This document shows, one piece after another, positions 44,552-45,368 of a DNA stretch of 64,000 nucleotides. Within the stretch, counting starts at the first letter, position 1. The number at the start of each line of letters is the position of its first letter. The translations under genes were made by a program, and so were the position numbers. The notes beneath the pieces were generated by a model. That model ran no database searches and was not told the DNA's origin. It worked only from the letters and a program-made list of their open reading frames with translations. Source of the stretch: an uncultured Acidobacteriota bacterium (GTDB lineage: Bacteria; Acidobacteriota; Terriglobia; Bryobacterales; Bryobacteraceae). The stretch is from the NCBI GenBank assembly GCA_902825945.1, contig CADECY010000004.1, forward strand, positions 104,139-168,138. The letters are read 5' to 3'.

Positions 44552-44579
44552 CCGCCGAGCCCCGGGCCGGGCTCGGCGG
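44552..44579 (-). terminator. 11-bp perfect hairpin after tiny ORF 1
   Basis: CCGCCGAGCCC (44552-44562) pairs with GGGCTCGGCGG (44569-44579), loop 6 nt. On the minus strand it lies 35 nt past the tiny ORF stop and 67 nt before the kinase start. No clear T tract follows, so it may be an attenuator or RNA-stability hairpin as well as a terminator. Confidence 0.6.
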
Positions 44580-44614
44580 TCATACGCGAACGTTGGTGTT
44601 TGCTGCCTGGGAGA

Positions 44615-44668
44615 CTACTCGCCCCAGCCCGCGCTATCGCCAGCCTTGACCTTGGTGTTGACCTTCAT
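44615..44668 (-). CDS. Tiny ORF 1, 17-residue peptide MKVNTKVKAGDSAGWGE
   Basis: Only 17 codons and a TAG stop, yet strongly supported as translated: AAGGAG lies 8 nt before the ATG, and the second copy at 45014-45064 keeps the first ten residues exactly and the WGE end. Promoter, leader and hairpin are also kept. The peptide is Lys-rich at the front (net positive), with Trp and Glu at the end and a variable middle (DSAG against TVA). There is no signal peptide or Cys. It could be a precursor of a modified peptide, a signal, or a leader/regulatory ORF. I do not recognise a named family. Confidence 0.65.
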   Translation of the reverse strand: MKVNTKVKAGDSAGWGE

Positions 44669-44708
44669 GGTGTGCTCTCCTTCGTCTTACTTGTTTGGCG
44701 TGGCCCGC

Positions 44709-44737
44709 TTCTGAACGATTGGGGATCCGTCCAGATC
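44709..44737 (-). promoter_or_regulatory. 29-nt identical leader block, copy A
   Basis: Identical over 29 nt to 45110-45138. Lies between the predicted transcription start and the ribosome-binding site, so it is in the 5' untranslated RNA. It contains GGATCTGGACGGATCC on the minus strand, which could fold or bind a regulator. Perfect identity amid diverged flanks suggests a function. Confidence 0.5.
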
Positions 44738-44758
44738 ACCGAACCACAGCATTGAAGT

Positions 44759-44774
44759 GGCAAGCTGAGTGCCA
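44759..44774 (-). promoter_or_regulatory. Sigma-54 (-24/-12) promoter of tiny ORF 1
   Basis: On the minus strand TGGCAC-TCAGC-TTGCC: a perfect TGGCAC-N5-TTGC match with the invariant GG and GC exactly 10 nt apart. The predicted start is near 44748, giving a leader of about 80 nt to the tiny ORF. The adjacent bEBP gene (45405-47294) supplies the needed activator. Confidence 0.85.
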
Positions 44775-44872
44775 AACACGGGCGATCTTCGGATCTGGCA
44801 TTCATGTGATTTGTAATGAATACTTTAGGGGTGATGTCTCGTTTTTGGTTATCCGCTGATCTCATTGGTTTC

Positions 44873-44911
44873 CCTAGCACCATTGCTGGGTGGCCAAACT
44901 TTTTTGCTAGG
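44873..44911. promoter_or_regulatory. Inverted repeat, candidate enhancer (upstream activating) site, copy A
   Basis: CCTAGCA (44873-44879) and TGCTAGG (44905-44911) are perfect 7-bp inverted arms separated by 25 bp. They lie about 100-140 bp upstream of the copy A -24/-12 promoter, the usual place for sigma-54 activator sites. Copy B keeps the neighbouring TGGCCAAAC (45294-45302 against 44891-44899) and TTTTTGCTA, so those may be the true recognition bases. Confidence 0.45.
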
Positions 44912-44955
44912 TGCAATCCTTTAGAACCCGAGCGAACGGAGTCCCCCCTGAAAAT

Positions 44956-44988
44956 GCAAATCCGCCGAGCCAAGCTCGGCGGATTTGC
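44956..44988 (-). terminator. 15-bp perfect hairpin after tiny ORF 2
   Basis: GCAAATCCGCCGAGC (44956-44970) pairs perfectly with 44974-44988 around a 3-nt loop. Read on the minus strand it is followed by ATTTTCAG. It lies 25 nt past the tiny ORF 2 stop and shares the CCGCCGAGC core with the copy A hairpin. Confidence 0.75.
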
Positions 44989-45013
44989 TGAAAAAACTGA
45001 TTTGGCTGGAGGA

Positions 45014-45064
45014 CTATTCGCCCCAAGCCACGGTGCCCGCTTTGACCTTGGTGTTGACCTTCAT
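45014..45064 (-). CDS. Tiny ORF 2, 16-residue peptide MKVNTKVKAGTVAWGE
   Basis: 16 codons plus TAG. AAGGAG lies 8 nt before the ATG. Identical to tiny ORF 1 over the first ten residues and the last three; the middle is TVA instead of DSAG, a one-residue length change that keeps the frame and the end. Frame-preserving divergence of this kind argues for translation and selection on the peptide rather than on RNA alone. It has its own sigma-54 promoter and hairpin. The function is unknown. Confidence 0.65.
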   Translation of the reverse strand: MKVNTKVKAGTVAWGE

Positions 45065-45109
45065 GTGTGTATCTCCTTCGTCTGTTTTTTTCTCTTTGGA
45101 GGCTCTAGG

Positions 45110-45138
45110 TTCTGAACGATTGGGGATCCGTCCAGATC
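45110..45138 (-). promoter_or_regulatory. 29-nt identical leader block, copy B
   Basis: Same sequence as 44709-44737, in the same place between promoter and ribosome-binding site. Confidence 0.5.
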
Positions 45139-45159
45139 CGCGAGCCACACCCTCAGTGT

Positions 45160-45175
45160 GGCAATCGGAGTGCCA
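45160..45175 (-). promoter_or_regulatory. Sigma-54 (-24/-12) promoter of tiny ORF 2
   Basis: On the minus strand TGGCAC-TCCGA-TTGCC, again a perfect match with GG-N10-GC. Predicted start near 45149, about 85 nt before the tiny ORF. Confidence 0.85.
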
Positions 45176-45368
45176 TCTTTACGATCCGGTGCTCGTGATC
45201 GGAGTAGCGCTTTTTTTGTGAATGTCTTACGGGCCGCTGATCGCTTCAGCCCCGTGCGCGCCTCTCATGTTCTTCCCCAACACCGATGTTTGGTGGCCAA
45301 ACCTTTTTGCTACGTGGGATCCCTTAGGAAGGACAGACCGGGGAGTACTGCCTCGATTTTTTTGTTCA

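What the first reader, a model, noticed from the sequence alone, without database searches (positions are those of the whole stretch)
44552..45330. Tandem sigma-54-controlled units, each encoding a 16-17 residue peptide
Two adjacent ~400-bp copies share, in the same order, a -24/-12 promoter with exact GG-N10-GC spacing, an identical 29-nt leader, AAGGAG at the same 8-nt distance, a tiny ORF, and a perfect hairpin. The peptides MKVNTKVKAGDSAGWGE and MKVNTKVKAGTVAWGE keep both ends and the frame while the middle differs in length, which points to selection on the peptide. I know of no named system like this; RiPP precursor, signal peptide or leader-peptide regulation are all open. No maturase is next to it.
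Basis: partly seen in the sequence, partly recalled or inferred. Interest (0 to 1): 0.93.

Follow-up and report, generated by a model that had tools for sequence, protein, structure and literature searches.

The report
Sigma-54 tandem genes for tiny peptides
Two back-to-back genes each encode a 16-17 residue peptide behind its own predicted sigma-54 promoter, and because relatives of these peptides in other bacteria sit beside a peptide-cutting export pump, they likely belong to a family of exported mini-peptides, for which our literature searches found no description.

Summary
On the minus strand, two ~400-bp units each carry a shared upstream site, a -24/-12 promoter, a Shine-Dalgarno, a 16-17 codon ORF and a hairpin. 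They lie between a divergent FHA-GAF sigma-54 activator and a Ser/Thr kinase. The peptides belong to a family with a near-constant 10-residue start (M-K-x-K-T-x-V-K-A-G) and a variable tail, seen in records named Acidobacteria, Deltaproteobacteria, Chloroflexi, Planctomycetota and others. Family peptides lie beside 10 of 29 activator homologues, 8 of them behind sigma-54-like promoters; nine of the ten loci have W-x-x tails like the window. In 150 family genomes, 14 of 15 with the peptide pattern encode one C39-peptidase ABC exporter, against 10 of 135 without it. In five relatives a peptide gene directly precedes HlyD-C39. The upstream site occurs only twice in this genome, at these units; in a sister species its best hit precedes two more peptide genes and a related kinase. 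Best reading: a kinase/FHA/sigma-54-switched peptide, predicted to be cut after A-G and exported, perhaps a signal. No maturase recurs beside the genes (single radical-SAM genes lie in two relatives). Nothing was measured.

The parts
45292..45312 (-). Upstream activator-like site of unit A (TAGCAAAAAGGTTTGGCCACC)
   Evidence: Shared block at same place in both units; with up to 3 mismatches only 2 sites in the 10.15-Mb genome, both here
45160..45175 (-). Predicted sigma-54 promoter of unit A, TGGCACTCCGATTGCC
   Evidence: GG-N10-GC exact; strict form 2 in 64 kb vs 0.08 expected
45110..45138 (-). 29-nt 5' leader identical in both units
   Evidence: lies in a predicted stem in both units
45014..45064 (-). 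Peptide gene A, MKVNTKVKAGTVAWGE, Shine-Dalgarno AAGGAG 8 nt upstream
   Evidence: family members
44956..44988 (-). Perfect 15-bp hairpin after gene A, terminator-like
   Evidence: I3; z -8.6
44889..44909 (-). Upstream activator-like site of unit B (TAGCAAAAAAGTTTGGCCACC)
44759..44774 (-). Predicted sigma-54 promoter of unit B, TGGCACTCAGCTTGCC
44709..44737 (-). 29-nt 5' leader, copy in unit B
44615..44668 (-). Peptide gene B, MKVNTKVKAGDSAGWGE, Shine-Dalgarno AAGGAG 8 nt upstream
44552..44579 (-). G+C-rich hairpin after gene B
   Evidence: z -3.8
45405..47294 (+). FHA-GAF-AAA-HTH sigma-54 activator, divergent from the peptide units (GTG start at 45405 inferred; the open frame runs up to 45222)
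   Evidence: Pfam FHA 8.8e-19, GAF 2.5e-11, Sigma54_activat 3.1e-73; GAFTGA
41957..44485 (-). Ser/Thr kinase with C-terminal half weakly matching beta-propeller repeats, directly downstream of unit B
   Evidence: Pkinase 2.3e-45; PD40 0.001, below cut-off; TolB model 2.4e-07, below cut-off; relatives of the C-terminal half among the loci held lie near this system's genes

Best explanation
The two units are predicted to make short peptides that are likely cut after the conserved A-G and exported by a C39-peptidase ABC pump, under what looks like a dedicated sigma-54 switch. Shown by sequence: two tandem promoter-ORF-hairpin units; a conserved 10-residue start with a variable tail; an activator with FHA and GAF domains on the divergent strand; a Ser/Thr kinase directly downstream; an upstream site found only at these two units in the genome; and a C39 exporter with its catalytic residues, HlyD and a second ABC protein on another contig of the same assembly. 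Inferred: the kinase, with its predicted propeller sensor, phosphorylates a partner read by the FHA domain; the activator binds the upstream site and opens sigma-54 polymerase; the 10 N-terminal residues act as a leader recognised by the C39 domain; the 6-7 residue tails (TVAWGE, DSAGWGE) are released outside. As to use, I think a cell-to-cell signal is likelier than an antimicrobial, because the tail is pheromone-sized and the switch looks private to the peptides.
For: Homologues of the activator: 29 loci in 25 of 150 family genomes. At 8 of 29, the window included, a sigma-54-like promoter (score 9 or more of 12) and a family peptide with Shine-Dalgarno lie on the divergent side (L045's second unit has a 12/12 promoter). 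Two more (G076, G458) have the peptide beside the activator with no promoter of score 8 or more in 200 nt. In the same 150 genomes the peptide pattern is in 15 (backwards control 0), the exporter in 24, both in 14; Fisher p = 1.5e-12, or 1.8e-11 without the doubtful G438 (relatedness not corrected). In G322 and G248 window-type peptides (MKVKSNVKAGRAVWGA, MKVKSNVKAGKGLWGA) lie about 100 and 70 nt upstream of HlyD-C39. G035 has peptide, activator and exporter in one 18-kb stretch. The C39 Q, C, H and D (roles recalled) are kept in the rows from all 31 loci given, some repeats of one gene. The upstream site is unique in the own genome. Used on sister genome G001, its one 1-mismatch hit precedes two MKIQTKVKSGSAIWGA genes, then a related kinase. 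A double dyad CTATC-N6-GATAG occurs 6 times in 5 of 8 genomes searched, each time in front of these peptides. The kinase's C-terminal half (42-52% identity) recurs beside the peptides (G001), near the activator (G002, G432, G029) or against the second ABC gene of the exporter (G450, G035).
Against: No transcript, peptide, cleavage or binding was measured. The exporter is not linked to the peptides in the window's genome (contig C56), and no sigma-54 site of score 9 or more lies within 1.2 kb upstream of its HlyD gene on that strand. The presumed cut follows A-G or S-G, not the usual G-G, G-A or G-S (recalled), and a 10-residue leader is short. 19 of 29 activator loci showed no family peptide with my filters, mostly over 1.5 kb only. 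Most family members elsewhere lack a sigma-54 site: 8 of 110 kept peptides have one, against 0.6% of random places. G440 (72% complete) has peptides but no exporter at E <= 1e-80. Five of 24 exporter genomes (G002, G015, G444, G454, G115) showed no peptide in the stretches scanned, and G438's pattern hit is doubtful. A SPASM-type radical-SAM gene lies about 6 kb from the G464 peptides, so a modified product is not excluded there. A signalling role rests on analogy only. The assembly shows 5.95% contamination.
Confidence: 0.66

Rival explanations
1. The exported tails are antimicrobial or otherwise bioactive products (bacteriocin-like, possibly modified by an unlinked enzyme) rather than signals.
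For: C39-HlyD export is the classical bacteriocin route (recalled); tandem copies with the same start and differing tails, up to 6 in one locus (L114); many tail types. Radical-SAM genes lie within about 8 kb of the peptides in G450 and G464, the latter SPASM-type. Sigma-54 control of natural-product genes is known in Myxococcus (PMC7910581, abstract and outline read).
Against: Tails are only 6-8 residues in the window's branch; neither radical-SAM gene has a relative in the other loci held; no maturase recurs among neighbour clusters.
Confidence: 0.25
2. The peptides stay inside the cell and tune the adjacent kinase or activator directly; the exporter link is coincidental.
For: In the window the peptides lie between the kinase and the activator with no exporter nearby.
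Against: 14 of 15 peptide genomes have the exporter; peptides of the same type precede HlyD-C39 in G322 and G248; conservation stops sharply after A-G as expected at a cut site.
Confidence: 0.08
3. They are cis-acting leader peptides (attenuators) for the downstream kinase gene.
For: Short ORF followed by a hairpin, then the kinase on the same strand; the same order in G001.
Against: The peptide, not a codon run, is conserved; family members sit in tandem up to six and before different genes; unit A is followed by a terminator-like hairpin and then another promoter.
Confidence: 0.03
4. The ORFs are chance and the conserved thing is an RNA or a regulatory repeat.
For: A 29-nt leader is identical in both copies and lies in a predicted stem.
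Against: Only synonymous changes in the first 10 codons; the same start is kept across phyla; the leader is not seen in the ten relatives' units printed; no Rfam match in the window.
Confidence: 0.02

Closest known systems
Double-glycine (GG) peptides exported by C39-peptidase ABC transporters (PCATs), e.g. ComC/BlpC pheromones and bacteriocins of streptococci (examples recalled)
   Same: Short precursor with conserved start and variable tail; C39-peptidase ABC exporter with HlyD partner; dedicated regulation. PCATs export GG peptides for communication and competition (PMC7018657, start of abstract seen in the listing)
   Different: Start is 10 residues ending A-G or S-G; Acidobacteriota and other Gram-negatives; sigma-54 with FHA activator and Ser/Thr kinase
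NHLP (nitrile hydratase leader peptide) bacteriocin export systems, TIGR03794/03796/03797
   Same: Three-part HlyD, peptidase-ABC and second ABC set; TIGR03796 is the best NCBIfam match of the peptidase-ABC
   Different: Scores far below the family cut-offs (L027 and L018 proteins: 198 of 853, 53.7 of 156.2, 121 of 709 bits; own-genome proteins 194, 49.9, 100); leader unlike Nif11 or nitrile hydratase (recalled)
FHA-domain sigma-54 enhancer-binding proteins of Myxococcus xanthus
   Same: FHA-bearing sigma-54 activators are known there (Jelsbak 2005, seen only as a cited title); a tie to Ser/Thr kinases is recalled
   Different: Here the activator appears dedicated to mini-peptide genes

Membership tests
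Sigma-54 (-24/-12) promoters | GG-N10-GC within TGGCAC-N5-TTGC | tested here: met
   Both units exact; 2 in 64 kb vs 0.08 expected
Sigma-54 (-24/-12) promoters | Distal activator site and a GAFTGA-bearing activator | tested here: met
   Upstream block unique in genome; activator next door with GAFTGA (12 of 15 aligned activators have GAFTGA, the other three GSFTGA). Binding not measured
C39-exported double-glycine peptides | G-G, G-A or G-S at the end of the leader | tested here: not met
   A-G in the window; A-G or S-G in the relatives of its branch; some family members have A-G-G
C39-exported double-glycine peptides | Gene linked to or co-occurring with a C39-peptidase ABC exporter with intact catalytic residues | tested here: met
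   Co-occurrence 14 of 15 genomes; next to HlyD-C39 in G322, G248; Q/C/H/D kept. In the window's genome unlinked
C39-exported double-glycine peptides | Cleavage and export of the tail | not testable with these tools
   needs biochemistry
RiPP precursors | Modifying enzyme encoded nearby | tested here: inconclusive
   None in the window stretch. Of 50 ORFs listed, all but known activator and exporter genes were scanned with Pfam: one radical-SAM protein, G450, Rv2578c/PA0069-like below cut-off. A SPASM-type ORF outside that list in G464. Neither recurs in other loci held
NHLP bacteriocin export | NCBIfam cut-offs TIGR03794/96/97 | tested here: not met
Leader-peptide attenuators | Regulatory codon run and alternative terminator before one structural gene | tested here: not met
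   No codon run in either ORF; hairpin, then new promoter after unit A

The most novel reading that the evidence does not exclude
A peptide signalling circuit of Gram-negative soil bacteria in which a Ser/Thr kinase with an outward propeller senses a C39-exported 6-7 residue peptide and, through an FHA sigma-54 activator, switches on the tandem genes that make it: a quorum-sensing loop built from a kinase, FHA and sigma-54 instead of a histidine kinase, and one branch of a much larger family of 10-residue-leader peptides across phyla.
Probability: 0.3. Interest if true: 0.93.

Novelty: new variant of a known kind. Interest (0 to 1): 0.82.

Why it matters
Genes of 16 codons are usually below annotation cut-offs (general knowledge), so a peptide family spread over several phyla could go unnoticed. 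Here it comes with an exporter, an activator, a kinase and promoters that make it directly testable. If the tails are secreted, this would be a very compact exported-peptide system, and it would give Ser/Thr kinases and FHA-sigma-54 activators of Acidobacteriota a possible ligand and output.

Tried and rejected
Pfam and NCBIfam gave no match for two relative peptides. Rfam and tRNA scans of the window were empty. A PDB sequence search with the exporter matched 502 sequences; in the 60 shown the best stretch is never in the C39 part. No family peptide was found next to the own exporter. The pattern GTNAARGCNGG alone is at background in the genome (220 hits against 251 backwards). Ten paper searches were answered: motif strings gave 0 papers, combinations of Acidobacteria, C39, HlyD, FHA or sigma-54 gave 0, and searches listed only papers that, by title and start of abstract, are on other subjects. 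These cover open-licence full text only.

Rejected: attenuator, chance ORF, type I toxin (the peptides are charged and have no hydrophobic stretch).

Dropped before counts: of 126 ORFs of 120 residues or fewer with the start motif, 110 were kept (Shine-Dalgarno and 70 residues or fewer, plus loci L119 and L138 kept by hand) and 7 longer ORFs left out; 23 of 95 loci had no kept peptide, and some of those (L099, L100, L113) look genuine but failed the filter. One search used 69 loci: 65 of the 95 stretches (15 left out by eye, 15 not yet looked at) plus four activator loci; some share a contig. The kinase count differs with method: 25 of those 69 loci by linkage clustering, 15 of 72 by best match. 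Titles were shown for 80 of 95 stretches. Of the 50 ORFs, 35 went into, which displayed 25 of 53 matched families; searches then showed 27 ORFs singly. Of the nine hits only L244 and L247 were scanned for peptides. The motif CTATC-N6-GATAG was read by eye from the loci in which it was then counted, so only its absence elsewhere is new information.

Full report
What is there. Added here is a shared upstream block (TAGCAAAAA-N-GTTTGGCCACC, 45292-45312 and 44889-44909), 115-137 nt before each promoter start. Divergent from unit A is an FHA-GAF-Sigma54_activat-HTH protein with GAFTGA. Directly after unit B comes a Ser/Thr kinase whose second half matches beta-propeller repeats weakly, below the curated cut-offs.

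The peptide is a family. A first scan of 61 genomes, the own included, found MKAKTKVKAG- and MKVKTNVKAG-starting ORFs in two others. An exact pattern for MKx[KN]TxVKAG was found in 7 of 399 genomes of the class, the own included, backwards control 0, and in 95 stretches of the genome-contig collection. Peptides kept by my filters lie in 72 of those 95 loci, in records named Acidobacteria, Myxococcota, Deltaproteobacteria, Chloroflexi, Planctomycetota, Gammaproteobacteria and others (titles seen for 80 of 95). A few hits are unrelated long proteins. 21 of the 72 loci hold two or more copies, up to six. The start is near-constant, in part because the pattern demands it; the rest varies: tails such as SAAWGT, SVNWG, GGGGNWGG, GGQITNI, RLAGNHNIIVR, FNPQPDPPG. 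Some members repeat the start motif inside one longer ORF before each NHNQ tail.

The sigma-54 branch. I searched 150 family genomes with the FHA-GAF part of the activator: 29 loci in 25 genomes at E <= 1e-30. On the divergent side of 8 of the 29 there is a sigma-54-like promoter and a family peptide with Shine-Dalgarno: the window, G432 (MKIKSKMKAGDPSAVWGT), G450 (MRTKTKIKAGVVIWEP), G464 (two...AATWGT), G035 (MRTKTKVRAGNSSWGS), G473 (three...AVWGT), G029 (MKVTTKVKSGSAVWGT twice, five peptides in all) and G197 (NHNQ type, two units). In one search the start motif was not demanded, so the likeness is a result. G076 and G458 have MKIKSNVKSGNAIWGD next to the activator, with no promoter of score 8 or more in 200 nt. 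The other 19 loci showed none with these filters. Scores of 9 are common in such DNA (33 sites in 64 kb), so the promoters count as a set, not singly.

The switch looks private. In G450, G464, G035, G473 and G029 two adjacent dyads CTATC-N6-GATAG stand in front of peptide promoters. Searched over eight whole genomes, the double dyad occurs 6 times, each time in front of these peptides, and 0 times in G000, G432 and G197. The window's own block occurs twice in its genome, at the two units, with up to 3 mismatches allowed. The activators differ in the presumed recognition helix: HPNHLFRLVK in the window and G002, HPNYLHRLIR in 8 of 13 others aligned. As a test I searched sister genomes G001 and G002 for a form of the block two bases shorter: nine hits, one with 1 mismatch and eight with 3, against six backwards control hits. 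The 1-mismatch hit, in G001, is followed by a weak promoter (score 9), two MKIQTKVKSGSAIWGA genes with Shine-Dalgarno, and a kinase 52% identical to the window's kinase in both halves. Nothing was found in G002.

The exporter. The own genome has one C39-peptidase protein, on contig C56, with HlyD before and a second ABC protein after it; no family peptide lies beside it. In relatives the set directly follows a family peptide in G023, G031 and G416, and with another gene between in G194 and G197; with window-type tails it directly follows in G322 and G248. In the 150-genome sample the exporter is in 24 and the peptide pattern in 15, both in 14 (Fisher). Within some genera presence changes together: in g5 one of five sampled genomes has both and four neither, in g54 one of four has both and three neither, in g28 one of two has both. 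Others are mixed: in g55 one has both, one the exporter only by the pattern, two neither; in g1 all three have the exporter but only the own genome has the pattern. Of the ten exporter genomes without a pattern hit, five have a peptide that the pattern missed (G031; G001; G248, G322, G476) and five showed none where I looked. The pattern hit of G438 is doubtful. The C39 Q, C, H and D are kept in rows from all 31 loci given. NCBIfam places the three proteins near NHLP export but far below its cut-offs.

Other neighbours. No maturase recurs. Among 69 peptide loci the gene clusters shared by seven or more loci are kinase, C39-ABC, FHA activator, HlyD and ECF. In the stretches around seven sigma-54-type or exporter loci and the window, Pfam found one radical-SAM protein (G450, about 4 kb from the peptide, nearest Rv2578c/PA0069 families, below cut-off), and a script found a SPASM-type radical-SAM ORF about 6 kb from the G464 peptides. 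Neither has a relative among the 266 loci held. A MacB/FtsX double permease follows the peptides in G450, G035, G473 and G029.

The kinase. The kinase's C-terminal half has relatives at E <= 1e-10 in six other genomes among all loci held, each near another part of the system: peptides (G001), activator (G002 and G029 adjacent, G432 within 4 kb) or exporter (G450 and G035, against the second ABC gene). The loci held were fetched for these parts, so this lacks an outside control; still, the kinases of the ECF-type loci compared do not share this half.

How it would work. Shown: the arrangement, the conservation and the co-occurrence. Inferred: kinase to FHA to sigma-54 signalling; cut after A-G; export; release of a 6-7 residue tail. 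The abrupt end of conservation after A-G or S-G, the repeated start motif before each tail in multi-repeat members, and the exporter link all point to that cut. Whether the tail is a signal or a weapon is open; I favour a signal.

Known or new. Pieces are known kinds: PCAT export, FHA activators, sigma-54 control of natural-product genes (PMC7910581, abstract and outline read). I found no description of this peptide family or of the combination in ten searches of open-licence papers.

Noticed in passing
L059, L061, L064, L100, L119, L132, L138, L143, L144: In another branch the peptides sit near an ECF sigma factor plus Ser/Thr kinase instead of a sigma-54 activator, some also with HlyD-C39, so the same peptide family seems to be wired to two kinds of promoter control.
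   Followed up: partly
L157, L159, L160, L169: An ~812-residue MacB/FtsX double permease follows the peptide genes on the same strand in four genomes; none was seen next to the units in the window.
   Followed up: partly
L158 8149-9492 (-): A SPASM-type radical-SAM ORF (CNLSCSYC) about 6 kb from the G464 peptides, without relatives in the other loci held.
   Followed up: partly
L142, L238, L258: A FNPQPDPPG tail type of the same start motif, four identical copies in L142.
   Followed up: no
L114 (Planctomycetota, KLAP164): Six copies in about 1.2 kb with glycine-rich N/W tails, spaced in pairs.
   Followed up: no
window 45110-45138 and 44709-44737: The identical 29-nt leader lies in a predicted stem in both units (whole-leader z -2.9 and -1.3); window 5' stretches from promoter to ATG (90-95 nt) are longer than the ten printed relatives' (36-54 nt).
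   Followed up: partly
L236 (G432): A multi-repeat member with five NHNQ-type cores in one ORF; genome G432 holds eight pattern matches of several tail types.
   Followed up: no
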